53,906 bases of DNA, taken from the IMG/VR virus record IMGVR_UViG_3300036850_000179, positions 1-53,906 of that record; one strand, given 5' to 3'. The stretch is from a virus. The notes beneath the pieces are model-generated. The model made no database searches. It was not told the origin of the DNA and saw nothing but the letters and a program-made list of their open reading frames with translations. Both the position numbers and the translations under genes were made by a program. Shown in pieces: positions 7,753 to 43,523 of this stretch (position 1 is the stretch's first letter; each line of letters begins with the position of its first letter).

Positions 7753-7974
7753 ATGGACCCCATCACTAGGAACATCGCACACAAGGTCCGCGCCGCCAAC
7801 CCGGATGACCCGCCTCAGTACCTCGGCCCCCGCCGGCCCGGTGCCGTCGAGGCGTGCCTCGTCGACGGGATGCACGTCATCAGCTACAAGGTCCACCGGG
7901 AGACCGGCTTCCACAAGCGGGCGATGGCCCGGCAGCGCCGGCAGGAGCGCGCCGCGAGAGGCTTGCTGACGTGA
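7753..7974 (+). CDS. Small basic protein of unknown function
   Basis: 73 residues, ATG at 7753 with AGGAGGGACG upstream. Basic C-terminal helix (HKRAMARQRRQERAARGLL). First gene behind the promoter-like element at 7703; overlaps the next start as GTGA. Confidence 0.75.
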   Translation: MDPITRNIAHKVRAANPDDPPQYLGPRRPGAVEACLVDGMHVISYKVHRETGFHKRAMARQRRQERAARGLLT

Positions 7975-8438
7975 TTCGGGTCGCGTTCGTGACCGGCAGC
8001 CGTGCGTTCAGGTCGACCGGTAGCGTGTGGGAGTGGCTGGACTGGCAGGCCCAGGCTGCCATCGCTCAGCGCGCGGACATGCTGGTGGTCATGCACGGCG
8101 CCTGTCCGTCCGGGGCCGACCACTACGCCCACACCTGGGTCGTCCAGCGTTCCTCCTCCTGGACCCGCCACGGCCTGAAGGTGCACGAGCAGGCCGACCC
8201 TGCGCTGTGGGCGGGTCTCCTCGGCAAGCATGCCGGCCCGGCGAGGAACAGCCGGCAGGCGCGCCGGCTCCAGGACTACCGCGAACATGGTGGCGTCGAC
8301 ATTCACATCGCGGTCGCACACTACGCCGTCGACCTCGATGCCTGCATGGCGTCCCACGGCGGCACCGCCGACCAGGCCAAGAGGTTGGTGCAGGCCGGGT
8401 TCGGCCGCGACGAGATGACCTACCTGGAGGAGACATGA
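7971..8438 (+). CDS. SLOG-fold (YspA/DprA-like) nucleotide-binding protein
   Basis: 155 residues from a GTG at 7971 overlapping the previous stop. Begins with a Rossmann strand and VTGSR loop, then a helix, then VVMHGACPSGADHYAHTW, then AGPARNSRQ, the order typical of the YspA-like SLOG family (VTGSR, HGxxxGAD, GPxRN). SLOG proteins bind nucleotides or NAD/ADP-ribose-like ligands; the substrate of phage members is not established. Its presence with a macro protein in one genome is notable. Confidence 0.8.
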   Translation: MIRVAFVTGSRAFRSTGSVWEWLDWQAQAAIAQRADMLVVMHGACPSGADHYAHTWVVQRSSSWTRHGLKVHEQADPALWAGLLGKHAGPARNSRQARRLQDYREHGGVDIHIAVAHYAVDLDACMASHGGTADQAKRLVQAGFGRDEMTYLEET

Positions 8439-8802: not shown

Positions 8803-9254
8803 CAAAGTCGAGCGCGAAGGGCTACCGCTGGGAGCGGGCCTGCGAGCTGTTCTGGAAAGCTCGCGGCGTTGAGGTGCGTCGCCCGCGCGCCGGCGACCCG
8901 GCTGATGTCGGGGACCTCATCGAAGCGCATCCTGCTACCAGCCTGTACGGCACCGTCCATGCCGGGGTGCTCGGGTGGACGCTCCAGTTGAAGAACTGGA
9001 GTCGCGGGTCGTTCGGCGACGGCACCCTTTGGGGTTGGTGGTTGGCGGTCCTGGCGCAGAAGCGGAACGGCTACGGCCGGTACGCCGCTCTCTGGGTGAA
9101 ACGGGAAGGCGTCGGTCACCCCGGCGGGAGCTGGGCCATCATGTCCATCGAGGAGCACGCGAAGCTGATGGAGGAGCTGCACAGCCTCCGCCGCACGGTT
9201 CGGGTTTACCAGCGTACATACGGAGATGGGAGGGTCCACCAGGATGCCACCTAA
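8799..9254 (+). CDS. Hjc-like resolvase / PD-(D/E)XK nuclease
   Basis: 151 residues from a GTG at 8799 (GTGA overlap). Residues 8-12 (GYRWE) match the conserved Gly...Arg-x-x-Glu helix; Asp36/Asp39 lie in PADVGDLIE; residues 63-65 (QLK) give the Q/E-x-K motif. This order is that of the Hjc-type Holliday junction resolvases, which cut branched DNA. It probably trims recombination or replication intermediates before packaging. A different PD-(D/E)XK nuclease role cannot be excluded. Confidence 0.7.
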   Translation: MTKSSAKGYRWERACELFWKARGVEVRRPRAGDPADVGDLIEAHPATSLYGTVHAGVLGWTLQLKNWSRGSFGDGTLWGWWLAVLAQKRNGYGRYAALWVKREGVGHPGGSWAIMSIEEHAKLMEELHSLRRTVRVYQRTYGDGRVHQDAT

Positions 9255-9423
9255 GCCGGGAGTTCCCCGCCGCGAGCGGAAAGCGGCCCGCAACGCCGAC
9301 CTGAAGGCCCGCCGGCCGCAGAAAAGCAAGGTCGGCATCGCCGGGAAGCAGGTCCAGCCGCCGCAACGGGTCGGCCGCAGCAAGGGCGCGACAAAGCGCG
9401 CCGTGAACAAGGGGAGTCGCTGA
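9244..9423 (+). CDS. Small highly basic protein
   Basis: 59 residues, ATG at 9244 with GGGAGGGTCCACC upstream, overlapping the nuclease gene end. More than a third Lys/Arg (RRERKAARNADLKARRPQKS), low complexity and probably disordered. A nucleic-acid contact is likely from charge alone. Confidence 0.65.
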   Translation: MPPKPGVPRRERKAARNADLKARRPQKSKVGIAGKQVQPPQRVGRSKGATKRAVNKGSR

Positions 9424-11177: not shown

Positions 11178-12254
11178 GTGGGAAACATCCTGCGCCCCGG
11201 CGACCCGGAGCTATTCCTCCAGAAGTTCGAGGGCCGCACCGACCGGTACGCCCTCCAGACCCCACTCACCGGGCCGGCATGCGGATGGTCGGCCTGCACG
11301 TCCGGCCCCGGACACTACCATCAGGTGCACAAACGCCTCACCGTCGGGGCGGTGGAGGAGCATCTGCTCGGCACCGCCGACGGCCGCTACACCATCGGCG
11401 CGTACACCGTCGGTGCCGGGAACATGACCCGGCTGCTGGTGTGGGACATCGACGACGGCAGCATCGACACGGCACTGCTGGTGTGCGAGACACTCCACGA
11501 GCTGGGCGTCGGAGCGGAGAAGGTATACCTGGAGTTCTCCGGCAGGAGAGGCTACCACGTGTGGCTGCTGCTGGAGCGGCCGATGGACGCCGAGCCGGCG
11601 TACCGGGCGGCGCAGGCGGTTGTGCAGGCGTCCGGCCAGGAGTACATGGAGGCGTACCCGAAGCAGCCGGCGCTGACTGGCAAGGGGTACGGGAACTGCA
11701 TCAAGCTGCCGTGGGGCGTCCACGCCGCGAACAACGGCTGGTCCCGGTCGGTCCTGGAACCGGCGCCCGGGTGGCGCTACCCCGAATGGCGCGACGTAGC
11801 CTGGACTACGGAGGACGACGTACGCCGACTCGCGCAAACATACCGGGAGACCGTACGTCCGGAGGCCCCCGCGCTGGTCGCGGCGGGGTCGCCGCTGCCG
11901 CCGTGCATGCATCGCGTCCTCCACGAAGGCGTCGACAAGGGCATGCGGGATGTCGCCGGGTACACGCTGGCCCGTCACGCCCGGAAGAACGGGCTGACGG
12001 AGGATGAAGCCCTTGCCCGTCTACTCGCCGCCAGTCAGCACTTCTCCGGTGTTCCCGCGCCGACGGAGGCGTGGGCGCGTACGAAGGTCCGGAATGCCTA
12101 CCGCACCCAGGGCGGCATCGATTGCACCCAACCGTTCCTGCATAACCCCAGCAACCTACTATGCTCGTCATTGTGTCCGCGCTACCGCACCATCCCGGGT
12201 GCGCTGGCTACATCCGACGCACCGGAAGGAAGCGCTCATGCCCGTCATGAATAA
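11178..12254 (+). CDS. Fused PriS/PriL-like archaeo-eukaryotic primase
   Basis: About 358 residues from a GTG at 11178. The start is uncertain, because GAGGAGG sits directly against it; a non-ATG start 9-12 bases further in is possible. Residues 87-93 (LVWDIDDG) give the hDhD metal site of archaeo-eukaryotic primases, and residues 121-130 (SGRRGYHVWL, His127) give the second motif. Residues 240-333 then match the primase large-subunit pattern: LPPC at Cys243, then Cys316, Cys329 and Cys333, suited to a 4Fe-4S cluster. One chain would therefore combine catalytic and iron-sulfur primase parts. Flanked by replication genes (Cas4-like nuclease, DnaB-like helicase). Confidence 0.8.
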   Translation: MGNILRPGDPELFLQKFEGRTDRYALQTPLTGPACGWSACTSGPGHYHQVHKRLTVGAVEEHLLGTADGRYTIGAYTVGAGNMTRLLVWDIDDGSIDTALLVCETLHELGVGAEKVYLEFSGRRGYHVWLLLERPMDAEPAYRAAQAVVQASGQEYMEAYPKQPALTGKGYGNCIKLPWGVHAANNGWSRSVLEPAPGWRYPEWRDVAWTTEDDVRRLAQTYRETVRPEAPALVAAGSPLPPCMHRVLHEGVDKGMRDVAGYTLARHARKNGLTEDEALARLLAASQHFSGVPAPTEAWARTKVRNAYRTQGGIDCTQPFLHNPSNLLCSSLCPRYRTIPGALATSDAPEGSAHARHE

Positions 12255-12642
12255 CCCTGACAGCCCGAACAGGGGCGGGCGACCGTCGTACACGGTCCTG
12301 GCCCAAGAAAAGGCCGCGCTGGCGGAGACGGTCGACAGCCTGACGCGGGAACTGGCGGAGCAGACCCAGCTCCGCATGGAAGCGGATGAACAGCTCGCGA
12401 ACGAGCAGAAGCAACATCAGTACGACAACCACGGCTGCGCCGAGGCGCTCGACATCGCCGCCAGGAACATCGAGCGAGCGCGCGGGGAGGTCCCCGAGGG
12501 GGTCCTGAAGTTCGGTTGCGCGCACCCGTACAGCGCGTTCCCGAAGGATTACAACGGCACCCTCGTCACCGACGGGACCTTCTGGTATTGCACCTTCAAC
12601 CACATGCGGGTCGGCATTCTGTCCCGCGAAGGCCAAGCCTGA
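12238..12642 (+). CDS. Hypothetical protein with coiled coil, next to the primase
   Basis: 134 residues from ATG at 12238 (GGAAGGAAGCGC upstream), overlapping the primase end by 17 bases. Disordered N terminus, then a coiled coil at residues ~25-70 (rich in Glu, Gln, Ala), then a small domain with two Cys and several aromatic residues. Could be a primase or helicase partner given its place; no family recognised. Confidence 0.7.
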   Translation: MPVMNNPDSPNRGGRPSYTVLAQEKAALAETVDSLTRELAEQTQLRMEADEQLANEQKQHQYDNHGCAEALDIAARNIERARGEVPEGVLKFGCAHPYSAFPKDYNGTLVTDGTFWYCTFNHMRVGILSREGQA

Positions 12643-13697
12643 TGCCGCTCGCTCGCATCCGCTGCGCGTCGGCAAAACTGGAACGCCGCGGGGAGCTGTG
12701 GCTGCCGACCCCGGCGGAGTGCGTCCGGCATGGTATGGACCGCGAGGCGGACTGTGGCATGTCGGGGGAGCTGCTGGAGGCGATGTACGGGAAGCAGCAG
12801 AACCGCGGCGCGAACATCTCCACGACGGCGCTGATAGCGGACTGCCCGCGCCAGGTGGTGCTGGAGCGGCGGGAGAACTACACCGTCGACCCGCGTCGGC
12901 TGTACGCCGCGTTCCGGGGGGAGATGGCACACAAGGTCCAGGAAGGCCACATGCGGCCTGGCTCGTGGGGTGAACGCCGGGTGTGGACGGCGCATCCGCT
13001 GAACCCGGGGGAGTTCATCTCGTGCTCCCCCGACCGGGTCGACCCCGACCTCGGCTACCTGTGGGACATCAAGTCGTCGGAGGAGCTGCCGAAGGGGCAC
13101 TGGAAGACGCCGTACCCGAAACACGTCAAGCAGCTCCAAATCAACGCCTTCATCATCCGGAACGCCGAATGGATAGAACCGCTGGAGGCGTCGAAGGACG
13201 GCCTGCCGCCGCTGCCGAGACGGACGGTGATGTCCGGGGGGGTGAAATGGCGGGAGTTCTCCCCGAACCCGCTGTGGGAGCCGTTCCCGGAGGAGCTACG
13301 CCCCGCCAGGTTCGAGCGGCTGTTCATCGAGTACATCGCGTTCGAGGGTTCAACGGTGCTGGAGTGCCTGAAGTCCCAGCGTGTCCCGACCACCGACGGC
13401 AACGGGACGAAGTGGGGGCCGAAAGTCCCCGACGTATGGGACGACGGCCAGGTCATCGACATGATGGAAGAGAACTACTACGACGTGAAGCGCGGCCTCG
13501 ACAGCCTCGACGACCCCGTCGGCTATGTCCCTCCCGTCCCGCCGCGCCTGGCCGGCTGGCCGCTCGACAAGCGCTCCCCGTGCAACTGGTGCGATGTGCG
13601 CCCCCAGTGCATGCAGCGGGAACTGGACGAAGGGCTGCCGAGTCTGAAGGGCACCCCGGATGGGGTGCTCGACCCGAAGCTGCTGCCGGCGAGGTGA
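12642..13697 (+). CDS. Cas4/RecB-like PD-(D/E)XK nuclease with iron-sulfur cysteines
   Basis: 351 residues from ATG at 12642, overlapping the previous stop by one base. His97 (GEMAHKVQEGH), Asp131/Asp134 and the DIK motif at residues 142-144 build a PD-(D/E)XK active site. Cys68 (ADCPR) plus Cys314, Cys317 and Cys323 (CNWCDVRPQC) match the four-Cys iron-sulfur arrangement of Cas4 and AddB-type nucleases. Such enzymes degrade DNA ends, often 5' to 3'. In this phage it likely makes single strands for recombination or works with the primase. Confidence 0.8.
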   Translation: MPLARIRCASAKLERRGELWLPTPAECVRHGMDREADCGMSGELLEAMYGKQQNRGANISTTALIADCPRQVVLERRENYTVDPRRLYAAFRGEMAHKVQEGHMRPGSWGERRVWTAHPLNPGEFISCSPDRVDPDLGYLWDIKSSEELPKGHWKTPYPKHVKQLQINAFIIRNAEWIEPLEASKDGLPPLPRRTVMSGGVKWREFSPNPLWEPFPEELRPARFERLFIEYIAFEGSTVLECLKSQRVPTTDGNGTKWGPKVPDVWDDGQVIDMMEENYYDVKRGLDSLDDPVGYVPPVPPRLAGWPLDKRSPCNWCDVRPQCMQRELDEGLPSLKGTPDGVLDPKLLPAR

Positions 13698-15535: not shown

Positions 15536-15984
15536 GACTGTGGGACGCAAGCGCCCGAGCCGAGAAGGCACTCGCCGCCTCGCACGAGAAGATGGTCGCG
15601 AAGCTCGCCGCCGACTCGGCGGTCGGGTCGTTCGTGTCGACCCTCCGGAACGAGGCCGCAACGTACGCCTCCGAGTCGGGCGACAGCCACCTCGGCAACC
15701 GCTCGTCCGTCAACGAGTTCTCCGCGCGGCTGGCGGAAGGGCATGAGCTGTCCCGACCTCCCGGCCGCACAGCACGGTCGGTCGACCCCGACACCCACAC
15801 CCACGGCCGCCCCGCCGCACAAATGTTCGCCGGCGGCGTCTTCGGTGCACGCCGCCCGGACGTTTACGGCAACATGCCGGTCGAGCGGTGGCCGTTCGAG
15901 TCGTGGCCCGCCGCCGACAGCGGCGGCGGTGGTGACAGCGGGCGCATCGAGAACCCGAACCCGCCGCCGGGGTACCGCTCGTGA
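15532..15984 (+). CDS. Hypothetical protein upstream of helicase
   Basis: 150 residues, ATG at 15532, coupled to both neighbours by four-base overlaps. Helical first half (ASARAEKALAASHEKMVAKL), Gly/Pro-rich second half that looks disordered. May be a helicase partner by position only. Confidence 0.7.
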   Translation: MRLWDASARAEKALAASHEKMVAKLAADSAVGSFVSTLRNEAATYASESGDSHLGNRSSVNEFSARLAEGHELSRPPGRTARSVDPDTHTHGRPAAQMFAGGVFGARRPDVYGNMPVERWPFESWPAADSGGGGDSGRIENPNPPPGYRS

Positions 15985-16961
15985 TAGGACCCGACCAGCT
16001 CCTCAACAGCGGCCAGCAGGCGTCGCAGTGGCAGAAGGAGGCCACCGACACCACCGCTGTCGCACCGACGGGCTTCCGGGAAATCGACCGGTACCTCAAA
16101 CGCCGTGGCTTCAGTCGCGGCAACGCGCACGCCCTCCTCGGTCGCTCCGGTGTCGGGAAGACGATGTTCCTCTGCAACCTCATCGAGCGGTGGCTGCTCG
16201 GCGGCTGGGGCGTGTTGTTCTCCAGTCAGGAGATGACCGCTGCGCAGGTCACGAACCGCCTCCTCGCCATCCGCTACCGGCTCGCCGTCGGGAAGATTGA
16301 GGAGGAGTTCCGCGGCGGTGGGATGGTCTCGCAGGTCGCTCCGCACCTCCAGCAGTACCCCCGGGACTTCGCTGGGTTAACGCTGTTCACCCACGACCGG
16401 CCGTCGTTCCGAGACCTAAAGGAAGCATGGCGGAAGGCCGGCCAGCCGGCCATCATCGTCCAGGACTACATGGGCCGCATGGCGGAGGTCCACGACGACG
16501 GCAGCCGCATGTACGGGTCGAAGAAGGACAAAACCGAGGAAGTCGCGTGGGGCTTCAAGACGCTCGCCCGTCAGCTCAACGTCATCACCCTCACCCTCGT
16601 CCAGACCTCCCGGTCCGCCGACGGCAGCGACCGGAAGGACCTCGGGCACATCCCGTTGACGATGGACGATGCCATGTACGGCGGCGAGGCCAGCTTCGAC
16701 GTGATGCTCGGCATCTTCCGGCCGGGGAAGAACCCGGACAGCTACCACGAAGACCTCCAGGAGGGCACGAACGCGGAGCAGTCCCGCTACCACCGCGCGG
16801 TCGGCATGCGGGAGAAGTACGGCGACAACATCATCGCCCAGGTGTTGAAGAACCGGTTCGAGCGGGACAACATCGCCGGCCACAAGCTGGAGACCGACTG
16901 GTCGACCATGCGGGTCGAGAGCACGACTGGAGAGCTGGGCTGGGCGGATGATGCGTGGTAG
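15981..16961 (+). CDS. DnaB-type replicative helicase (RecA-like core only)
   Basis: 326 residues from a GTG at 15981. Walker A at residues 54-61 (GRSGVGKT), the catalytic Glu at 84 (SSQEM), Walker B at 158-163 (IIVQDY) and the ALARQLN/TLVQTSR stretch follow the DnaB/RecA family order. At 326 residues it lacks the usual DnaB N-terminal primase-binding domain. It should unwind DNA as a ring using ATP, most likely with the primase encoded upstream. Confidence 0.85.
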   Translation: MIGPDQLLNSGQQASQWQKEATDTTAVAPTGFREIDRYLKRRGFSRGNAHALLGRSGVGKTMFLCNLIERWLLGGWGVLFSSQEMTAAQVTNRLLAIRYRLAVGKIEEEFRGGGMVSQVAPHLQQYPRDFAGLTLFTHDRPSFRDLKEAWRKAGQPAIIVQDYMGRMAEVHDDGSRMYGSKKDKTEEVAWGFKTLARQLNVITLTLVQTSRSADGSDRKDLGHIPLTMDDAMYGGEASFDVMLGIFRPGKNPDSYHEDLQEGTNAEQSRYHRAVGMREKYGDNIIAQVLKNRFERDNIAGHKLETDWSTMRVESTTGELGWADDAW

Positions 16962-25028: not shown

Positions 25029-28000
25029 CTACTCCTCCGGGTCGTAGTCGGGCGCCGGCGACCAGAACGTCCAGTCCGGCGGGTCGATGTAGAACGTGTA
25101 GTCCGGCGGGGGCAGGTCGACAACCTCGACGGGACCGGGGCCGGTCACGAACCCGTCGATAGGCTGCGCCTGCTCCGCCTCGACAACTTGGCCGAGCTGA
25201 TGGACCTGCGGGACACCGACGAGGCCGCCCATCGGCTGCGCCTGCTCCAGCTCGACGACCTGCCCGAGCATAACAGTCTTCGTGACGCCGAGAGGCTGCG
25301 CCGTCTCCGTCTCCACAGACGGACCTATCACCCAGAGCTGGTCGGGCGACTCCGCGAGGGCGTTCATCCCGAGGATGAGGTCCTGGTACGCCGCGCCGTC
25401 TTCGGTGGTGTTGTCCTCCAGCGAGACGCTGTCGCTGCGGGCGTTGAACAGCGTCAGGTACTCGCAGTGGTAGTCGACGTAGGTCTGGAGGGTCGCGAGT
25501 ATCCGCTGGAACCCGAGCGCGCGGTGCGCGCGGGTGCCGCGGTTCCCGCCGGACGCACACAGGACCGTCCCGCCGCCGAGGTCCATCCCGTACTCGGAGA
25601 CGGCCAGTTTCCGGCCGTCGAGGTCGGACCACTGCCGTGTCGCGGTGCGGTTGTCCCGGAGGTACTGGAAGTCCTCCGCGTGCTTCGTCGCGATGTTCGT
25701 CGTCGACCCGCACGCGATGTAGGACTGCTGCGACACGATGTCGATGAAGTTCACGCCGCCAGCCAGCGTCGGCCACAACGCCTCCATCCGAGATGGGGTG
25801 AAACTGTGGCTGTTCATGTAGGTCATCTGCCAGCGAACCCGCGTGCCGACGCCGGCGGCCTGGAACCGGGCGTACACCCGCCGCCATGCCGCGATGTAGT
25901 CGGTCGGGGTCATCCCCGAGCCGGGGGTGGTGTTCTGGTCGTTCTCCCCCTCATGGTGCCAGGTGTACTTGATGGGGCGGGCGGGGTCTATGTTCGCGAC
26001 GATGCTGGCCGCGAGCGCATCGAAGTTCGCGTCGCCAGCACCCGACCCCTGGCCGGCCCAGTTCACCCCGGCGGCGCCCTTGTGGTACAGGAGAATATCA
26101 TGGCCCTGGTTGTACGCGGTGATGACTTCCGCGGGGAGCGCGGAGCCGTTCGCAAGGTAGTACGACCACGGCCCGTCGAAGTTCCCGTCGAACATGGCGA
26201 TGTCGCGGTTCAGCTTCGTCCGCCACGACCCCGTCTCGCTGTTACCGGCGAGGTCCTGGTACCACTGGTTCTTGTCGCGCCACAGGCCGACCCGGAGCGG
26301 CGTCCCGCCGGTCGGGAGCATCGGCTGTGCCGTCTCCGTCTCCACGATTTGGTTGAGTGGCACCTCGCGCGCCCCAGTCAGCCCTTGCGGGGTCTCCAGC
26401 TCCGTGACCTGCCCGAGAGGAACCGTGATGGAGCCGCCGCCGAACACCATCGCCTGCGGCGTCTCCGTCTCCGTCACCTGGTTGAGGGGAACGTACTTCA
26501 CGACGCTGACGGCCTGGGCGGTCTCGACTTCGGAGGCTTGGCTGACTGCGGGGGCGGACTGGACAGTCAACCCCTGCGCCGTCTCGGTCTCCTGGACCTG
26601 CCCGACGGGGACCCGCGTCGTCCCGCCGGTGCCTTTCACCGCGACATGGATGATGGCCTGCCGGCCGGTGAACGTCCCCGCGTCGGTCGTGAACGTCTCC
26701 CCACCGAACGTCCCCGCCTGCCGCGAGTACGTCCCGCCCTGGTTGCGGATGCTGCACGACACCGCATAGTTCGTCGAGCCACCGGCGTCGTCGCTGTCCT
26801 TCTCCGACAGCTCCTCGTGGTTGGTCGCCTGCGCGAGGGTGAAGTCGGGTACGCTGCCTTTCCGGAACCCGTACCCGACGAGCAGGACCGACCCTGGCGT
26901 CGAGATGGTCTGGTTCGGCAGGACGATGCTGCTGTCGGTCCCGAGCGACGTATCGGAGGTGTCCGTCGCATCGAACCCGTTCGTGGACCGGAGGAGCTGC
27001 CCCGCGACAGCGCTGTTGCTTGACACGTCCAGGTTGATGGTCGCTTCCGGCTCCGACGCGCCCGCAATGCGGGTGAGGTGGTTGAGCTGCATGCTGCTGT
27101 TCATCACCGTCGTCCGGACGGTGTACGGCGCGCCGCCGAGGCCGGTGGCGGACACGACCGGGGTGATGGACGACACCAGCACAAACAGCTCGATGAGGTC
27201 GCCAGCTACGGCGACACCGGCGATGCCGGAAGTCTGGTACGACGTGGTCGACCGGGCTTCTCCGGTGATGTCGCCGACGGGGGTGATGGCGGCGCCCTGC
27301 TGGACGCCTATCGCTTGCGCCGTCTCCGTCTCGACCGTCTGAGCGACCGTGACCCGCTTCTCCGCGGTCATCCCGAACGGCGTCTCGGTCTCGGTGACCT
27401 GCCCGAGTGGAACGTACGTCGCTGGAGTGACCGCCTGAGCCGTTTCGGTCTCGGTGGTCTGACCGACGGCTACGTCCAGCTCGACTGTGAGGCCCTGGCC
27501 CGTCTCCGTCTCGACAACCTGCGCGACGGCGACACTCTTCTCAACTGTCACCGCTTGCGCGGTTTCCGTTTCGGTCACCTGGCCGACGGGGACGTTCTGG
27601 TCTCCACCGGCGCCGACGGTGATGGCCTGCGCCGTCTCGGTTTCAGTTACCTGCGCGACGGTGACATCTTTCTCGACCGTCAGCGCTTGGCCGGTCTCCG
27701 TCTCTGTCACCTGCGCGACCTGCACATCGAGTTCGACGGTGAGCGCCTGCGGCGTCTCCGCCTCCACGACCTGTCCCAACGGGACGTATGTCGCCGGCGT
27801 GACCGCCTGAGCGGTCTCCGTCTCGGTGACCTGCGCGGCAGCGACATCCTTCTCGACAGTCACCGCCTGGCTGGTCTCCGTTTCGGTGACCTGCCCGAGG
27901 TTGACGGTGACGCCGCTAGCGACCTCACGGACGGCGACGCCGACAGCGACCGCGTCGTCGGCGGCGGCGGTGAAGTCGACCGTGATGGTGCCGCCGGTCG

Positions 28001-28562
28001 CGATGTTCGTCCGTCGGACCGTGACTCCGCTCTTGGTGCCGTAGTCGAACGTGTTGGCGCTGGTGTAATCCGCCCCCACGGTGATGTCGGCAGGAGCGTT
28101 CGCGCCGGAGAACAGCGTCGCCGCGATGAACGTCTCCACACCCGCCGGCGTCACCAGTGACAGCGCCGGGTTTGCTAGCGAGTCGCTGTTCAACGTGTCG
28201 GTGTCGACGACCTCCGTGTCAGCCGCCGCTGTCGCCGTGAAAACGTGAACCTTCAGCGAGGTCGCTGCCGCACCCTGCCTGGTGACGACGCAGTCCTGGG
28301 TGCCGTCGGGGATGGTGTCGCGGTCGCCGAGAAACCACCCGTGAGCGGAGCCAAGCTCCCCGGTGGTGTGCAACACCGGCGAGCCGGTGACCTCGGCGAG
28401 GGACTGGCCGCCGTATGTGATGGACGCGACCTCGTCTGCTGACGTGAGGTACTGGACGAGGACGAGGACGCCGGCGACGTTCGCCGCCGCACCGGCGTGG
28501 GAGACGGTGACGGTTGCACCCGTGCCAGCGCCATTCGTGTAGGTGTCGAAGGCGATGGCCAT
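25029..28562 (-). CDS. Tail fibre with glycoside hydrolase domain and 18 short repeats
   Basis: 1177 residues, ATG at 28562 with CAGGGAGGCGAA upstream. Beta-rich lectin-like N-terminal (~220) and central (~200) domains are joined by three blocks of a ~19-residue repeat ending in VTETETAQA: about ten copies at 27300-27905, five at 26320-26620 and three at 25150-25320. Between blocks two and three lies a GH26-like hydrolase (WHHEGEND with Glu871; VSEYGMD with Glu990). The fibre would bind and trim a host surface polysaccharide. The exact sugar cannot be told. Confidence 0.85.
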   Translation of the reverse strand: MAIAFDTYTNGAGTGATVTVSHAGAAANVAGVLVLVQYLTSADEVASITYGGQSLAEVTGSPVLHTTGELGSAHGWFLGDRDTIPDGTQDCVVTRQGAAATSLKVHVFTATAAADTEVVDTDTLNSDSLANPALSLVTPAGVETFIAATLFSGANAPADITVGADYTSANTFDYGTKSGVTVRRTNIATGGTITVDFTAAADDAVAVGVAVREVASGVTVNLGQVTETETSQAVTVEKDVAAAQVTETETAQAVTPATYVPLGQVVEAETPQALTVELDVQVAQVTETETGQALTVEKDVTVAQVTETETAQAITVGAGGDQNVPVGQVTETETAQAVTVEKSVAVAQVVETETGQGLTVELDVAVGQTTETETAQAVTPATYVPLGQVTETETPFGMTAEKRVTVAQTVETETAQAIGVQQGAAITPVGDITGEARSTTSYQTSGIAGVAVAGDLIELFVLVSSITPVVSATGLGGAPYTVRTTVMNSSMQLNHLTRIAGASEPEATINLDVSSNSAVAGQLLRSTNGFDATDTSDTSLGTDSSIVLPNQTISTPGSVLLVGYGFRKGSVPDFTLAQATNHEELSEKDSDDAGGSTNYAVSCSIRNQGGTYSRQAGTFGGETFTTDAGTFTGRQAIIHVAVKGTGGTTRVPVGQVQETETAQGLTVQSAPAVSQASEVETAQAVSVVKYVPLNQVTETETPQAMVFGGGSITVPLGQVTELETPQGLTGAREVPLNQIVETETAQPMLPTGGTPLRVGLWRDKNQWYQDLAGNSETGSWRTKLNRDIAMFDGNFDGPWSYYLANGSALPAEVITAYNQGHDILLYHKGAAGVNWAGQGSGAGDANFDALAASIVANIDPARPIKYTWHHEGENDQNTTPGSGMTPTDYIAAWRRVYARFQAAGVGTRVRWQMTYMNSHSFTPSRMEALWPTLAGGVNFIDIVSQQSYIACGSTTNIATKHAEDFQYLRDNRTATRQWSDLDGRKLAVSEYGMDLGGGTVLCASGGNRGTRAHRALGFQRILATLQTYVDYHCEYLTLFNARSDSVSLEDNTTEDGAAYQDLILGMNALAESPDQLWVIGPSVETETAQPLGVTKTVMLGQVVELEQAQPMGGLVGVPQVHQLGQVVEAEQAQPIDGFVTGPGPVEVVDLPPPDYTFYIDPPDWTFWSPAPDYDPEE

Positions 28563-36158: not shown

Positions 36159-39100
36159 CTAGTCCCGAAGTGCAGGTCTGCTCGTCACGCTCGCCGTCTC
36201 CGCGACCAGCGGTCGCATGCCCCACCGGTCGACGAGGACCTTGATGTACGCAGTCTGGTCGGCGAGGTACTGCTTTGCGAGGTCGGGGTAGTCCCCGAGG
36301 GTCTTCGCGACGAGACGGAGGAACTGCTCGTAGCGGCGGTGCCGCTCGTTCGCGAAGTACTCTTGCAGCTCCGGGTGGGACGCCGCGAACGCCTGCTTCG
36401 TCGACGGGTCCTTGATGGTGAAGTACCGCTGCGCCAGGTCGAAGAGCTGCCGCTCCCGCCCGGTCCGCAGCGCGCGCCAGTACGCGACCAGCTCCGGGTG
36501 CTTCTGGAGGAACTCATCCCGCGCGTACGTCGGCAGCTCGGAGAACTGCTCCATCAACGTCGACATCGGGTCCTGCCGTTCCGTCCACAAACCATACCGG
36601 AACATGATGTCCCGGACGACTTCCTGGTACGGCTCCGGCATGTTCGCCATCGGGCCGCGCTGGAGCCACCGGCCTATCTCCGGATGCAGCTCCAGGTACG
36701 ACGCCTTCTTTTTTCCCGACGGCATCTTCAGCCACAGCTCGTACGCCCGCGGCGCCTGCTCGCCCGGCTTCCGCTTCGTGTACTGCGCGAGCTGTGTCCG
36801 CGCAAAGCCTATCTCGATGGCGTCGTTGTAGGTCGCGGCGCCACCCTCGACGGTGTCGTCCCACCGGCCGTACTTCGTCATGATGAACCGGACGATTTCG
36901 GCGACGCCGGGCGGCATGTTGAACATCGGGCCGGCGCGGAACCACGCCTGCAACCGCGGGTGGGTGCGGATGTACTCCGCACGGAGGACAGGGTTGTCGC
37001 CGATTTTCTTCAGCTCGTCCAGCTCCGCCTGCGGCGCGGCCATTCCTTCCCGGCGGGAGTACTGCTTGAACATCTCCAGCGCGAACGCCAGCTCCCCGAA
37101 CCCGTCGCCAAGACGGTGGCCCCATACCTTCCATTCGTACCGCTTCCACCGGGACCAGCGGCCCCGACCGCGGGCGCCTGTCCCGCCGTCGCCGTCGGCC
37201 TGCATGCGCTTCCACTTCTCGATGGTGTCTTTGTCGACCATCCACGAGTCGCGGAGCAGGTCCTTCTGGAAGTTCGTCAGCCAGTCCCACTCCAGCCGGC
37301 CGCGACCGGACGCCTGATTCAGGCGGTCGCGTAGGTCCCGGATGGTCTCCTCCTGGACGTGCGGGGGCATCCACGCGAACCGACGCTCCTCGAAGCCTTC
37401 CTCCGTGTCGAAGCCCATCCGGCGGAAGTCGAGGGGGCTGCCGGCGCGGCCCATCTCCTCCCAGTTGCGATATGCCCGCATGAGGCGTATCTCGTCGTGG
37501 ACATCGTGGAGGATGGGGACGGTGTTGTAGAGCGAGTCGTTCAGGGCTTTCTTCTGCGCGTACAGCGCGGTCCGCTGCGAGGTAAGCTGCTTGATTTGGG
37601 CGCCGAGGCCATCCACCCAGACGTGGTTCGCTTTCGCCCACTCCAACTTCTCAAACAGCTTCGACAGCTTCGCGTTGACGGCGTCGAGCTGGCCATTCAA
37701 ATGGCCCAGCCGGGAGCCGACGTTGTCTTTCCGCTCCTCCCAGTACGTCTTCGCGGCCAGCTCGCCGTCGCGGTACGCCGGGTTCTTGCTGCCCAGCTCC
37801 TCGTGGTACTTGTCGTAGGTCTCCCGGCGGATGCCGTAGTACTTCCAGAACTCGTCGAGGTCGTCGGTCAGCCGCATCTGGTTCTCGACCCATTTGATAG
37901 CCTCGGCGGGGGTCAGCTTCTCCCGGGCGAATGTCTCCGCGTCCATGCCCTTCGTCTCGCGCCACAGCTCGTCTATCTGGTCGAAGGTGCGCGCCTCCGC
38001 CCACAGGTTCTTGTGCCGCAACCCGGCGCGCCAGTCAGCCGTGTAACCGTCGAACTTCGCCTGGGAGACGTTGTTGCCGACCCGCCACGCCTCCAGCTCA
38101 ACACGCCGGTCGCCGGCGGGCAGCGACATGATGGCGTCGAACTCGATGTCGCGGTCGTACAGCTCCTTCATCTTCGCCCACGCCGGCTCGTCGGACCACT
38201 TCCGCTCCCACTCCCGGATGGCGTCGACACGCTCGTACGGGTCGAGCAGGTCACCGATGGCGCGCCGCTCCGTGAACATCTCCCCGAGCTTTGCCGCGTC
38301 GTCGAGGACTTTCCGGTAGGCGGCCGGGTCCATAACCGAACGGGAGCCGACGAACGCAGCCCACTCCTCCTCGCTGGTGAGGTCACGCCAGTCCTCGACG
38401 GACAAGTTCACCAGCAGCGCCTTCGCGCGGTCGGGGTTGTCGGCCTTCAGCCGGTTCCACCAGTCTTTCCCGTACCGCTTCTGGTAGTCACCGACATCCT
38501 TCGCGAAGTCGTACCGGTTGACGTACGGGACGAGTTCCGGATGGTTGGTGAGGAGCATTCCCCACTGCACCTCACCGTCGCGGGTGTACCGGTCTATCTG
38601 CCGCTGGAACTCCAGTTGCCCGGCGTAGGTCTGCTGACTGGCGGCGGGGATGAACAGACCGAAGAAGAACTTCAGGGCGAAGGCGCCGCGGAGGGCCTGC
38701 TCAACCTCCTCCGCGGTCGGTGTGCGACCGAGGCGGAAGTACAGCTCCCGGACCATCTTGTCGGCGAGGACGTTGTTCTCCCGCGTCGACCAGCCACCTC
38801 CCACGAGCGCGCCGAGGAGATACCTGGCTTCGGGCCGGCCGATGACGGCGGTGAGGAGCTGCTCCGGTTCCAGTTCATGCGGCCGGACGCCGAGCGGCGG
38901 GCCGGCAGGGAACAACCACCGGCGCAGCATGCTCTTATGCGGGTACAGTTCCGGATGGGTCGACAGCGCGACCGCCATCCCCGAGCTGTACCACGGGCCG
39001 CCGGGGGTCGGGATGAACGCGCCGGCGACGTACTGGAGGAACAGGTTGTCGCCGATTCTGGCAGCCTCCAACGGCAGCGTCATGAAGATGTCCCGTAGTT

Positions 39101-42100
39101 TGAACGACAGCTCCAGGTCTTCCAGCGCGCGGCCGTAGCCGACTTCCTTCGCGGCGGCGTCGAACGGCACCCAGTCCGGCGCGATGTCCGCGTACCAGCG
39201 GGCGACACCCTCTACCGCCTCCGGTATCTTCAGGCGGACGCGCCACTCCCCGAAGTCGTCCTGCACCAGCGGGCTGTTCTCCGCGTGGGTGCCCTGCGAG
39301 AACAGACGGGCGTAGCGGATGTACGTCGCCGCGGCGGCGGCGGGACGCTCCCGCAGAAGACGACCGGCGACCCGGAGCTGCTCCTCCCGTGCTGACTGGA
39401 ATGGGAAGATGAGTTCCATCTTCTGCGCGAACACGGAGCGCTGACCGGCGTCGTACATGATTTGGTTGGTCCGCCGGACAGCGTGGAGGTTCGCGAGCCG
39501 CGACGCCTCCGGGTACGGCACACCAGAAGCGGTGAGGGCGCGCAGCTCCCGCTGGTATTCGATGAACGCGAACGGCTGCCGGGTCAGGCCGGTCGTGCCC
39601 GACTCGAACGTCATCCGCTCCAGCGACTTCCACGGGTGCTTCACGACATCCAGCGGGCCGCCTATCTGCGGACGGCCGTACACCGCGATAGGGAGGTCGC
39701 CCGGGGCGAGCGCGCGCACCTCCGCTAGCGAGATGAGGCCGCCGAGGCGGCGCTGCGCGACTTCGTCGCTGCGGACGATGGACCGTGCCCATTCGGTGAA
39801 CGCTTGGACGACTTCCTCCGCGTCTTTCGCGCCGTTCATGCTGCGGTACATCGCGAGGTACGGGCGCCCTTCGGCGCTGCGGAGCCACTCGACCGCGTTC
39901 CGGTACGCGATGTCCCACTCGTCGGTGCCTTCCCGCCACAGCACCCCGAGCATGTAATGCGCGACCGACTCCGAGTCGGGGTTGACCTGTCGGTTCAACA
40001 GGTGCCACAAGTTCTCCTCGAACCCGGCTTCGCCCTGCTCGATGACTTGGGTGTCGCCGCCTCGCGCCCAATGCTTGTACGCGAAGTAGTCGGGGACTTC
40101 CTCCAGTCCGATGCCGGACCAGGAGCCGAAACCTTCCCGTTCGACCGCCATCATGTGGTCGCTCGCGCGCCGCGCGGTCGCTCCGATAGCGAACGCCGGC
40201 CCCATTCCCTGCGCGACCTGCGCGCGGGTCTTCTCCTCTAAGGTGATGCGGAGGACGTACCGCGGGGCGGCGAGGGTCAACACCGACCACTTCCACAGCC
40301 GGTGGACGGGCCATAGCACCGATGAGGCGGCGGCCATCGCCCAGGTCGTTGCGTACCCGCTGGTGACGGCTGCGCCGATGGTGTTGCGGCCTTCGTCGAG
40401 GGCGCGCCGGAGCTGGATGGCGTGCGACCACGCCTTCAGCATCTCCGGGTCGACGAGGCCGACGAAGTTCGCCGACTGGGTGAGCGCCTGCGGCGACGTG
40501 ACCGCCTCCAGGACATCCTCGCCGTCCTTGTCGACCTTCACGATGGCGCCGTATACCTTCTCGTCGCCCGGTTTCGCGGGGCCGGTGCCCTTGCTGGTGT
40601 ACTCCATCCCGGAGCGGCCGTACCGGAAGTCCCGTTTCGCGGCCGGACCGACACGGAACGGGCCTATCTCCACCATCCCCCACTTTGGGGCGTTCTGGCG
40701 GAGCCATTCCCGGAACCCGTCGCGGTGGAGGGCCATCAGCTCGTTCACTTCGGCGACGGTGTGGCCGCGGCGGAAGGCGTACTGCTCCACGAGCCCGTCG
40801 ATGACGGCCTGGATGTCCTCAACACGTTTGCCGGGGTCGATGCCGGCCTGGTACACCCGCCACGCCGCCTCGCCGGCTTCCGCCTCCGACGCGCCAAGGT
40901 AGCGGGCATAGTCGGTCATCAGCTTCGCGGTCGTCTCGACGTTCTCGATGGACGCTGTCAGCTTCGTCGGGTACATATCGAACGGGGCCAGGAGCACCTT
41001 CGCGAGGCGCTGCCGCCCCCGCCCCGCCAGCCCGCGCATCTGGTCGGGTCCTATCTGGAATCGCTGCATCTCCCGGTACGCTGCAACATCCCGCAAGAAC
41101 GCCTGCTCGGCGAGGTCGTACGCCTCCTGCGGCGTCCGCAGCGCGACCGCGACATCCTTCTCCAGTTGCGCGAACCGCTGGTGCAACTCCTGGGACAGCT
41201 TCACCCGCCCGAACCGCTCCATCACCGCAGTCACGTCGTTGACGGCCTGCGCCCACTTCGCGTACATCGGGGTACCGAACGTCTTGAACGCCGACGCCGT
41301 CCGGAGGTCCCGCAATGCTTTCAGCCAGTCCGGGTCCTGACCGAACAACGCCTGCTGTGCCGGCGTCATCCTCGCGGCGATGTCATCGATTTCCTGCTGG
41401 TACGCCGCCCGGACACCTTCGAGCCGGCGGATGAGCGCGTCGCGCATCGCCGAGGGCGGCAGCAGGCCGATGTACGTCGCGGCGTTGACCTGCCGGACGG
41501 CCATCTCATGGACGGCCTTCCCGGGCTTCAGTTTCGGCGCGCCCGCCTTCGTGACCCCGACCTGGACGCGGGATATCTGGTCGAGGGCGGCCTTCAGGTC
41601 CTTATAGTCGGGGTCCTCAGCAAACCGGCGGAGATATGGCGCGATGTTGCGGAGGGTCGGGTCGTCGGCAAGACGCCGCCCGAGGTATGCCCGCCGTTCC
41701 GTCCCGCGTAGCGTCCGACGCATATGGTGGGACAGCGCGTAGGTGTGCGCGGAGCGAGTCCACAGCGGCATCTGCTGGAGGACTTCCTGGATACCGTCGA
41801 CGGTCCCGAGATGAGACATCAGCGCGACCTGACCGACGCCCTGAGCGACACGGGTCGGGAGGGAGATGAGTGGCTTCCACTCCCGCCCGAGCGCGAACGT
41901 CAGCAACGCCGCGAGCTTCTGCTCGTCGAGCGGTCCGTCGCCGAGCTGCTGCGCGAGCGTACGGGCTTCATTCTGTGCCTTCTCCGCGGCGGCCTGGTTC
42001 GGGCCGCGCCGCGGTCGGGCGTTGATGTAGCGAGCGAGGTACTCCCGCGCCTTCCCGCCGGTCGGGTCGGTCAGCGCGGAAACTAGCTTGCTTTCCTGCG

Positions 42101-43523
42101 CGGCAGCATTATCGAGGCCGCGAACGGTCTTCAGCAGCAGTGACACGTCCCGGTTCGCGCCGGCACGGGCCGCCTGTGTCGCAGCCTTCCCGATGATGGC
42201 GCGCCCCGCGGCGGTGGAGGCGAACCGTTCCGCCTTCGCGGCGTCGCTGATGATGAGCAGCGGCCGGACGCCCTTGCCGAGGACGAGGGTGGGGTCGAAG
42301 AGGAGCTGGTAGGAGAAGTCTCCGACCCGCGAGATGACGGAACCTTCGTAGGACGACTGGCCGTAGCCGGCTTCCGGGCGGCCGGCGGACAGCAGGAATG
42401 CCCGCCGTAGCCGCTCTGTACGGCGTGTAGCGTAGTCCTCTAGTGCACGGCCGGTCAATCCCTGTTGACGGCCGAGTTCACGGGCCGCCTTCATGGTGTG
42501 CTCGCGGCCCATCAGGTCACGTGCGAACCGCTGGCCGAACGACTCCATCTGACGGGTCAGGGCGAGCTGGTCCCGTTCCGCCCGGTCGTCGGTCGCCTCA
42601 GCGATGGTGCGGGCGAACGTCCCTTCCGGGAGCAGCCCCGCGGTCCGGGTCGCCGATGCGGCGCCAGCGAATACCGCCTCGCCGAACGCTCCGAGAGTCT
42701 CGTCGAACGCTTCGCGCGCCTCCCGGAACGCGACGCCGGGGACGAACAGCCGCTCGAAGATGCTCGGTCCGCCGCCGGTTTCCCGCCGGAGGTCCTGCGC
42801 GGTCTGAAGGTCGAGGCTGCGCTGGAAAGCGTACCCGAACCGGCTGGGGAACTCCAGCAGCGTCCGCGCGGGGGCGGTGTCCAACCCAGCCAGCCGCACG
42901 CCGGCCTCCAGGGCGGTTCCCGCCGCCGACTTCACCCGCCCGAGGAACGTGTGCGCCTCCGCCGCCTGGCGGGCCTGCGCTGCCGCCAGCGCCGCACTCT
43001 CCCGCGCCTGGCCGGTCTCCAGCTCCCCGAGGGTCTTCACGCGCTTCGCGGCAGCCTCCGCCTGCTCGCGGAAGATGCCCGACTCGCCGGTGAACCCGGC
43101 GATGAACCGGGCGATGGACGCCTCACGGGTGAGGGCGTCCTCGCCGCGCATCGCGCGCTGGATGCCCTGGAGCCCGCGCTGAAACGCCGCCTGGTCGCGG
43201 GCGACCTTCCGCTGGTACTCCGCGACCGCCGCGGCGGCACCCTTCGTCTGAAGTGTCACGCCCCTCTGGCGGGACAGATAGACGTAGGAGTGGTACGCGC
43301 GGGAGGTCTGCGGACCCCACTTCCCGTCGACGGCGACGTTGAAGCCGGCAGCGCGGAGGAGCCGCTGGAGGTCACGGACGTACGCCGGGTCGCGCGTGAG
43401 GCGGGCCTGCTGCTGCGGGATGGTCTCGAACTGGCCGGGGAGCCGGTTGTAGCGGGTCGGGAACCGACGCTTGATTTGCGTCGGTGTACCCGCCCGGCCA
43501 CCTACCCCTGGGACAGGAGGCAA
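36159..43523 (-). CDS. Giant virion protein (2454 residues), probable ejected internal protein
   Basis: Starts at a TTG at 43523 (AGGTGAACT upstream), 11 bases after the portal stop. Residues ~48-80 (RDLQRLLRAAGFNVAVDGKWGPQT...) form a peptidoglycan-binding type 1 motif. The bulk is helical with many Arg/Ala/Leu segments and no transmembrane block. The final ~450 residues carry at least four spaced copies of a motif like YxxxHPELxxY or HPRLQAWF, with further single copies before. Such very large proteins in short-tailed phages are injected with or before the DNA. I find no polymerase motif. Confidence 0.8.
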   Translation of the reverse strand: MPPVPGVGGRAGTPTQIKRRFPTRYNRLPGQFETIPQQQARLTRDPAYVRDLQRLLRAAGFNVAVDGKWGPQTSRAYHSYVYLSRQRGVTLQTKGAAAAVAEYQRKVARDQAAFQRGLQGIQRAMRGEDALTREASIARFIAGFTGESGIFREQAEAAAKRVKTLGELETGQARESAALAAAQARQAAEAHTFLGRVKSAAGTALEAGVRLAGLDTAPARTLLEFPSRFGYAFQRSLDLQTAQDLRRETGGGPSIFERLFVPGVAFREAREAFDETLGAFGEAVFAGAASATRTAGLLPEGTFARTIAEATDDRAERDQLALTRQMESFGQRFARDLMGREHTMKAARELGRQQGLTGRALEDYATRRTERLRRAFLLSAGRPEAGYGQSSYEGSVISRVGDFSYQLLFDPTLVLGKGVRPLLIISDAAKAERFASTAAGRAIIGKAATQAARAGANRDVSLLLKTVRGLDNAAAQESKLVSALTDPTGGKAREYLARYINARPRRGPNQAAAEKAQNEARTLAQQLGDGPLDEQKLAALLTFALGREWKPLISLPTRVAQGVGQVALMSHLGTVDGIQEVLQQMPLWTRSAHTYALSHHMRRTLRGTERRAYLGRRLADDPTLRNIAPYLRRFAEDPDYKDLKAALDQISRVQVGVTKAGAPKLKPGKAVHEMAVRQVNAATYIGLLPPSAMRDALIRRLEGVRAAYQQEIDDIAARMTPAQQALFGQDPDWLKALRDLRTASAFKTFGTPMYAKWAQAVNDVTAVMERFGRVKLSQELHQRFAQLEKDVAVALRTPQEAYDLAEQAFLRDVAAYREMQRFQIGPDQMRGLAGRGRQRLAKVLLAPFDMYPTKLTASIENVETTAKLMTDYARYLGASEAEAGEAAWRVYQAGIDPGKRVEDIQAVIDGLVEQYAFRRGHTVAEVNELMALHRDGFREWLRQNAPKWGMVEIGPFRVGPAAKRDFRYGRSGMEYTSKGTGPAKPGDEKVYGAIVKVDKDGEDVLEAVTSPQALTQSANFVGLVDPEMLKAWSHAIQLRRALDEGRNTIGAAVTSGYATTWAMAAASSVLWPVHRLWKWSVLTLAAPRYVLRITLEEKTRAQVAQGMGPAFAIGATARRASDHMMAVEREGFGSWSGIGLEEVPDYFAYKHWARGGDTQVIEQGEAGFEENLWHLLNRQVNPDSESVAHYMLGVLWREGTDEWDIAYRNAVEWLRSAEGRPYLAMYRSMNGAKDAEEVVQAFTEWARSIVRSDEVAQRRLGGLISLAEVRALAPGDLPIAVYGRPQIGGPLDVVKHPWKSLERMTFESGTTGLTRQPFAFIEYQRELRALTASGVPYPEASRLANLHAVRRTNQIMYDAGQRSVFAQKMELIFPFQSAREEQLRVAGRLLRERPAAAAATYIRYARLFSQGTHAENSPLVQDDFGEWRVRLKIPEAVEGVARWYADIAPDWVPFDAAAKEVGYGRALEDLELSFKLRDIFMTLPLEAARIGDNLFLQYVAGAFIPTPGGPWYSSGMAVALSTHPELYPHKSMLRRWLFPAGPPLGVRPHELEPEQLLTAVIGRPEARYLLGALVGGGWSTRENNVLADKMVRELYFRLGRTPTAEEVEQALRGAFALKFFFGLFIPAASQQTYAGQLEFQRQIDRYTRDGEVQWGMLLTNHPELVPYVNRYDFAKDVGDYQKRYGKDWWNRLKADNPDRAKALLVNLSVEDWRDLTSEEEWAAFVGSRSVMDPAAYRKVLDDAAKLGEMFTERRAIGDLLDPYERVDAIREWERKWSDEPAWAKMKELYDRDIEFDAIMSLPAGDRRVELEAWRVGNNVSQAKFDGYTADWRAGLRHKNLWAEARTFDQIDELWRETKGMDAETFAREKLTPAEAIKWVENQMRLTDDLDEFWKYYGIRRETYDKYHEELGSKNPAYRDGELAAKTYWEERKDNVGSRLGHLNGQLDAVNAKLSKLFEKLEWAKANHVWVDGLGAQIKQLTSQRTALYAQKKALNDSLYNTVPILHDVHDEIRLMRAYRNWEEMGRAGSPLDFRRMGFDTEEGFEERRFAWMPPHVQEETIRDLRDRLNQASGRGRLEWDWLTNFQKDLLRDSWMVDKDTIEKWKRMQADGDGGTGARGRGRWSRWKRYEWKVWGHRLGDGFGELAFALEMFKQYSRREGMAAPQAELDELKKIGDNPVLRAEYIRTHPRLQAWFRAGPMFNMPPGVAEIVRFIMTKYGRWDDTVEGGAATYNDAIEIGFARTQLAQYTKRKPGEQAPRAYELWLKMPSGKKKASYLELHPEIGRWLQRGPMANMPEPYQEVVRDIMFRYGLWTERQDPMSTLMEQFSELPTYARDEFLQKHPELVAYWRALRTGRERQLFDLAQRYFTIKDPSTKQAFAASHPELQEYFANERHRRYEQFLRLVAKTLGDYPDLAKQYLADQTAYIKVLVDRWGMRPLVAETASVTSRPALRD

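What the first reader, a model, noticed from the sequence alone, without database searches (positions are those of the whole stretch)
11178..12254. Single-chain primase joining PriS-like and PriL-like (Fe-S) parts
The chain shows the hDhD site (Asp90, Asp92) and SGRRGYHVW motif of archaeo-eukaryotic primases, followed by a C-terminal part with Cys243, Cys316, Cys329 and Cys333 in the LPPC...C...C...C order of the iron-sulfur domain of PriL. Fusions of this type are rare and not commonly described in tailed phages of bacteria. It may also serve as a polymerase.
Basis: partly seen in the sequence, partly recalled or inferred. Interest (0 to 1): 0.75.

Follow-up and report, generated by a model that had tools for sequence, protein, structure and literature searches.

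The report
Phage primase with PriL-like cysteine domain
This tailed-phage gene encodes a compact one-chain DNA primase whose tail resembles the iron-sulfur half of archaeal and eukaryotic primases; similar one-chain primases are already known in archaea, plasmids and a few phages, so it is a sound but modest find.

Summary
The 358-aa frame at 11178-12254 (+) has Asp90/Asp92, SGRRGYHVW and Cys243/316/329/333 where stated. Residues 11-189 are an archaeo-eukaryotic primase (AEP) domain of the TOTE/CAPP kind (Pfam PF22548, E=1.6e-19), closest in structure to the Prim-Pol of Marinitoga CAPP (Z 22.7), not canonical PriS. The C-terminal part is a compact relative of the PriL Fe-S domain. All four Cys are invariant in 13 divergent relatives. 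A profile of the domain matches the PriL part of fused DPANN primases (hhalign 96.7%, none of 200 shuffles near), and its model best fits PriX, with PriL Fe-S domains behind. The PriL N-terminal domain is missing. The model cannot show whether the Cys cluster in space or bind Fe-S rather than zinc. The record is a tailed phage with a nearby DnaB-like helicase and no DnaG or PolA/B/C match, so this is most likely its replicative primase. Single-chain PriS-PriL primases are published (DPANN archaea, plasmid pTN2, a Bacillus provirus), CAPPs carry a Cys-containing C-terminal domain, and at least nine other uncultivated phage contigs plus two GenBank phages share this layout. It is a new member of a known kind.

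The parts
11178..12254 (+). Single-chain AEP primase gene (358 aa, GTG start assumed)
   Evidence: Open frame, AEP-TOTE hit, four invariant Cys
11208..11744 (+). AEP (Prim-Pol) catalytic domain, residues 11-189; hDhD D90/D92, SGRRGYHVW with H127, E158-PKQ, K176, H182
   Evidence: PF22548 E=1.6e-19; MpCAPP Prim-Pol hmmsearch E=6e-43 with the family profile; model Z 22.7 to 7nqf over residues 4-225
11892..12176 (+). PriL/PriX-like C-terminal domain, residues 239-333, with C243, C316, C329, C333
   Evidence: hhalign 96.7% to the PriL part of DPANN fused primases; model fits PriX Z 7.8-8.8 and PriL Fe-S domains Z 4-5
12238..12642 (+). Small ORF (134 aa) overlapping the end of the primase gene; function unknown
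   Evidence: Open frame; no Pfam match over cut-off
12642..13697 (+). Possible PD-(D/E)XK nuclease (reading by eye only), neighbour of the primase in related phages
   Evidence: SPDRVDP..DIKSSEE motif read by eye; homologues beside the primase in 7 other phage contigs; no PDB match and no Pfam match over cut-off
15981..16961 (+). DnaB-like replicative helicase, C-terminal domain only
   Evidence: PF03796 E=3.4e-19; phrog_19 E=4.8e-30; homologues near the primase in 8 related contigs

Best explanation
It is the phage's own replicative primase. The N-terminal TOTE/CAPP-type AEP domain joins nucleotides with a two-metal site built on D90/D92. The C-terminal helical domain, a compact PriL-CTD/PriX homologue, is covalently attached and so acts in cis: it holds the template and the 5'-triphosphate end of the initiating nucleotide, helping the first dinucleotide to form and setting where priming stops. 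Its four Cys bind a metal centre that folds the domain, most likely 4Fe-4S by homology. The nearby DnaB-like helicase opens the fork and a host polymerase extends the primers. Shown here: domain identity, conservation of the catalytic and Cys residues, gene context, absence of matches to DnaG and PolA/B/C. Inferred: primer synthesis, cis action, cluster type, use of the host polymerase.
For: AEP-TOTE hit far above cut-off. CAPP Prim-Pol match by sequence and by structure, Z 22.7; that domain primes and polymerises in vitro, and mutating its two Asp abolishes activity (PMC8211822). The CAPP CTD is modelled as acting like Pri2/PriX on the initiating nucleotide (PMC10345425). Four Cys invariant in 13 relatives. 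CTD profile vs PriL part of DPANN fused primases 96.7%, score 60.9 vs 17 for the best of 200 shuffles, 95.4% with Cys masked. A PriL-CTD HMM built from those archaeal genes finds the CTDs of five phage relatives, E 9e-7 to 9e-4, and NCBI's PriL model finds that of L015, E=9e-10. Cys spacing 73-13-4 here, mostly 72-12-6 in DPANN. DnaB-like neighbour with conserved gene neighbourhood. No DnaG or PolA/B/C match.
Against: No PriL family hit on the window protein itself: PF04104 gives nothing in the record, and PriCT_1 is below its cut-off. The local profile alignment covers only the first Cys and the helices; the last three Cys align only in global mode. The model is poor beyond residue 319 (pLDDT under 50), so Cys clustering is not shown. 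The MpCAPP Prim-Pol domain primes efficiently without its CTD (PMC10345425), so the CTD may be dispensable. The record may be incomplete, so absences are weak.
Confidence: 0.78

Rival explanations
1. The four Cys bind zinc rather than a 4Fe-4S cluster. The C-terminal domain is then a PriCT-like helical bundle stabilised by zinc, and the 'Fe-S' label is wrong although the primase role stays.
For: The last two Cys are only four residues apart (C-x3-C), shorter than the spacing I recall for eukaryotic PriL; most phage AEP homologues fetched here lack the four-Cys pattern (41 of 57); AF2 gives no metal and low confidence there.
Against: C...C...C...C order and spacing match the DPANN PriL part (72-12-6); the PriL family is a known 4Fe-4S domain; PolpTN2 with its four Cys was purified light brown and lost the colour without them (PMC3973330).
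Confidence: 0.25
2. The enzyme is chiefly a repair, recombination or defence-related primase-polymerase (CAPP- or TOTE-like) rather than the replicative primase.
For: The nearest solved relative is CRISPR-associated and the Pfam family is named for a conflict system; a possible nuclease lies just downstream.
Against: No helicase-nuclease TOTE fusion and no CRISPR genes seen near it; the gene lies with a DnaB-like replicative helicase, repeated in 8 related phage contigs; no DnaG-type primase found.
Confidence: 0.12
3. It is the phage's main DNA polymerase as well as its primase.
For: No PolA, PolB or PolC match in the record; CAPPs and PolpTN2 extend primers in vitro (PMC8211822, PMC3973330).
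Against: AEPs lack proofreading and are thought to act mainly as primases (PMC5862659); many phages use host polymerases; the record may be incomplete.
Confidence: 0.07

Closest known systems
CRISPR-associated Prim-Pols (CAPP; MpCAPP 7nqf, PMC8211822) and their phage homologues
   Same: Same type of Prim-Pol domain (Z 22.7); followed by a PriCT-like C-terminal domain reported to hold conserved cysteines
   Different: No TPR domain, no CRISPR genes seen; scores 70.7 against the CAPP model's cut-off of 200
Fused PriS-PriL primases of DPANN archaea and Nanoarchaeum equitans (PMC7414124)
   Same: One chain of catalytic domain plus PriL Fe-S domain; Cys order and spacing nearly equal (72-12-6 vs 73-13-4)
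   Different: Their catalytic domain is described as PriS, ours is TOTE/CAPP-type; theirs is the cellular primase
PolpTN2 of Thermococcus plasmid pTN2 (PMC3973330, PMC5862659)
   Same: AEP plus PriL-like part with four Cys in one chain of a mobile element
   Different: 923 aa, with PriCT-1, a full-length PriL-like part and a winged-helix domain; ours is 358 aa
Primases of Dinoroseobacter phage vB_DshS-R5C and phage 023Pt_psg01
   Same: AEP plus xPPC...C...C...C tail; R5C is the third structural match in BFVD
   Different: Longer (592 and 514 aa) with a further C-terminal part; 20-22% identical
pRN1 primase helix bundle / PriX / PriCT-1
   Same: Same helical fold (PriX Z 8.8, pRN1 Z 4.3); PriCT is published as related to PriL Fe-S_N (PMC5862659)
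   Different: I recall no four-Cys motif in them; not tested here

Membership tests
AEP-TOTE (Pfam PF22548) | Score above the curated cut-off | tested here: met
   70.9 bits vs 27, residues 11-189
AEP-TOTE (Pfam PF22548) | AEP catalytic motifs hDhD and sxH | tested here: met
   D90, D92 and H127 present and invariant in relatives
CAPP (NCBIfam NF040561) | Score above the curated cut-off | tested here: not met
   70.7 bits vs 200
CAPP (NCBIfam NF040561) | CRISPR-Cas operon and N-terminal TPR | tested here: not met
   AEP domain starts at residue 11, leaving no room for TPR; neighbours tested that gave a match are phage replication and DNA-metabolism genes
PriS-PriL fused primase | Catalytic domain of PriS type (PF01896) | tested here: not met
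   16.8 bits vs cut-off 26.8
PriS-PriL fused primase | PriL Fe-S domain: four Cys in C...C...C...C order on a PriL/PriX-like helical fold | tested here: met
   window protein itself does not reach PF04104
PriS-PriL fused primase | PriL N-terminal domain | tested here: not met
   Only about 50 residues lie between the AEP domain and C243; the roughly 430-aa DPANN fused primases are also short
PriS-PriL fused primase | 4Fe-4S cluster bound by the four Cys | not testable with these tools
   Needs purified protein; the model is of low confidence there and coordinates are not given
PriCT_1 (PF08708) | Score above the curated cut-off | tested here: not met
   16.8 bits vs 21.1, residues 248-289

The most novel reading that the evidence does not exclude
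A phage lineage of its own uses a minimal one-chain Fe-S primase (TOTE/CAPP-type catalytic domain plus PriL-derived domain) with a bacterial-type DnaB helicase as its standard replication cassette, perhaps with the cluster's redox state controlling primer hand-off as proposed for eukaryotic primase.
Probability: 0.15. Interest if true: 0.55.

Novelty: new member of a known kind. Interest (0 to 1): 0.32.

Why it matters
If the cluster is confirmed, these 340-360-residue phage proteins would be unusually small self-contained primases with a PriL-type domain, useful for studying how that domain helps start a primer without a partner subunit. They also show that PriL-like Fe-S-type domains occur in phages of bacteria, bearing on the open question of how PriL and PriCT domains passed between mobile elements and cells (PMC5862659).

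Tried and rejected
Single-protein searches for relatives found nothing in viral contigs or named phages at E 1e-5; a two-sequence alignment also gave none in viral contigs. A six-sequence alignment was too divergent to search. A degenerate DNA pattern of the SGRRGYHVW motif worked. The short CTD profile found no PriL chain in the PDB by sequence; profile-profile comparison and folding did. Spatial clustering of the Cys could not be measured: model coordinates are not in the box. I rejected a chance Cys pattern (invariance), a spurious frame (domain hits and codon composition) and a host-chromosome origin (TerL, portal and major head protein in the record). My first choice of + strand ORFs beyond 20 kb was wrong: the structural genes are on the - strand (against 84).

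Full report
OBSERVATION. Its codon-position composition is coding-like. The start codon is not certain: the frame is open back to 11091 and the Shine-Dalgarno-like GAGGAG lies directly against GTG 11178.

CATALYTIC DOMAIN. Residues 11-189 match Pfam AEP-TOTE at E=1.6e-19, 70.9 bits against a cut-off of 27. DNA_primase_S (PriS) and LigD_Prim-Pol are below their cut-offs. NCBI's CAPP model is hit but far below its cut-off. PHROGs give two primase families. Among solved structures the nearest is the Prim-Pol domain of the Marinitoga CRISPR-associated Prim-Pol, E=2.6e-9 by single sequence and 6e-43 with a family profile. The AlphaFold2 model (mean pLDDT 77) aligns with it over residues 4-225 at Z 22.7, rmsd 2.5. 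So the part called PriS-like is an AEP domain of the TOTE/CAPP branch. MpCAPP residues D177/D179 are essential (PMC8211822); D90/D92 are the matching hDhD pair.

C-TERMINAL DOMAIN. Relatives were found with a degenerate pattern of the HVW motif and from an alignment of four of them. In a 13-protein alignment (relatives 20-31% identical to the window protein) all four Cys are invariant. The set holds nine IMG/VR contigs, a Halobaculum plasmid and the GenBank phages R5C and 023Pt_psg01. Six-frame reading of 57 distinct AEP homologues from the fetched loci found the 4-Cys tail in 16, the window included; that sample is biased by how it was fetched.

To test the link to PriL, PriL-family genes were taken from a DPANN phylum. 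The ten read in full were one-chain PriS-PriL primases themselves, as published for DPANN (PMC7414124). A profile of 12 AEP-tail domains against 29 of their PriL parts gives hhalign 96.7%, score 60.9. The best of 200 column shuffles scores 17.0; with all Cys masked it is still 95.4%. The local alignment covers the first Cys and the helices; in global mode the other three Cys also line up. Cys spacing is 73-13-4 here and mostly 72-12-6 there. An HMM of the archaeal PriL part finds the tails of five phage relatives at E 9e-7 to 9e-4, and NCBI's PriL model finds that of L015 at E=9e-10. PF04104 gives nothing on the window itself.

By structure, residues 239-330 of the full model fit PriX at Z 7.8. 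The domain predicted alone (pLDDT 72) fits PriX best (Z 8.6-8.8), with yeast, Xenopus and human PriL Fe-S domains next among primases (Z 4-5; saposin also reaches 6), then the pRN1 helix bundle. For a small helical domain these Z values alone would be weak; they count because the top families are the ones the sequence profiles point to. Only the CTD of PriL is represented; the N-terminal domain is absent.

CONTEXT. The record is a tailed phage: major head protein (E=1.6e-57), portal and large terminase on the - strand. Its left part carries a RusA-like resolvase, the primase, a small ORF, a possible nuclease, a DnaB-like helicase (E=3.4e-19) and an HNH gene on the + strand. Homologues of the DnaB-like gene lie near the primase in 8 other contigs of the 4-Cys group, and of the possible nuclease in 7. 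No PolA, PolB, PolC or DnaG N-domain match is found in the record, which may be incomplete.

MECHANISM. Most likely this is the replicative primase: catalysis by the AEP domain, with the attached C-terminal domain binding template and the triphosphate of the first nucleotide, as described for Pri2/PriX and modelled for the CAPP CTD (PMC10345425). In pRN1 primase the matching helix bundle must be covalently joined to the catalytic domain for primer synthesis (PMC8076596). Fe-S binding is inferred by homology with PriL; PolpTN2 was light brown and lost the colour without its Cys region (PMC3973330). Zinc is the main rival.

NOVELTY. One-chain fusions of AEP and PriL-like domains are published for Nanoarchaeum and other DPANN archaea, pTN2 and Bacillus provirus phBC6A51. 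CAPPs have a C-terminal PriCT domain with conserved Cys, and CAPP homologues are noted in phages (PMC8211822). PriCT domains are considered homologues of the PriL Fe-S part (PMC5862659). This protein is therefore a new member of a known kind. Close relatives are absent among 50,697 named phage records at E 1e-5, so the sub-lineage itself looks undescribed.

Noticed in passing
36159-43523 (-): A 2454-aa ORF between the scaffold-like and portal genes, with only a sub-threshold peptidoglycan-binding motif near its N-terminus; possibly a large virion protein delivered with the DNA.
   Followed up: partly
25029-28562 (-): An 1177-aa ORF with many VGQVTETETAQAVTVEK-like repeats and what reads like a glycoside-hydrolase-type stretch; likely a tail or fibre protein. 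No PHROG match.
   Followed up: partly
9229-9310 (-): ARAGORN calls one tRNA-Ala (CGC) on the strand opposite to the surrounding genes, overlapping + strand ORFs; may be a false positive.
   Followed up: no
12642-13697 (+): Conserved neighbour of the primase with a D..DIKSSEE motif and a late Cys-rich stretch (CNWCDVRPQC), like RecB/Cas4-type nucleases by eye, but no PDB match and no Pfam match over cut-off.
   Followed up: partly
L083-L092: PriL-family hits in the DPANN phylum sampled are one-chain PriS-PriL primases of roughly 410-485 aa that, like the phage protein, seem to have no room for a PriL N-terminal domain.
   Followed up: partly
PDB 2atz against residues 7-208 of the model of 11178-12254: The uncharacterised Helicobacter pylori protein HP0184 (2atz) is the best structural match after CAPP (Z 13.3, 157 residues), suggesting an AEP-like fold.
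   Followed up: no
7854-8438 (+): YAcAr/SLOG-family protein (cpYpsA-related), just below the Pfam cut-off.
   Followed up: no
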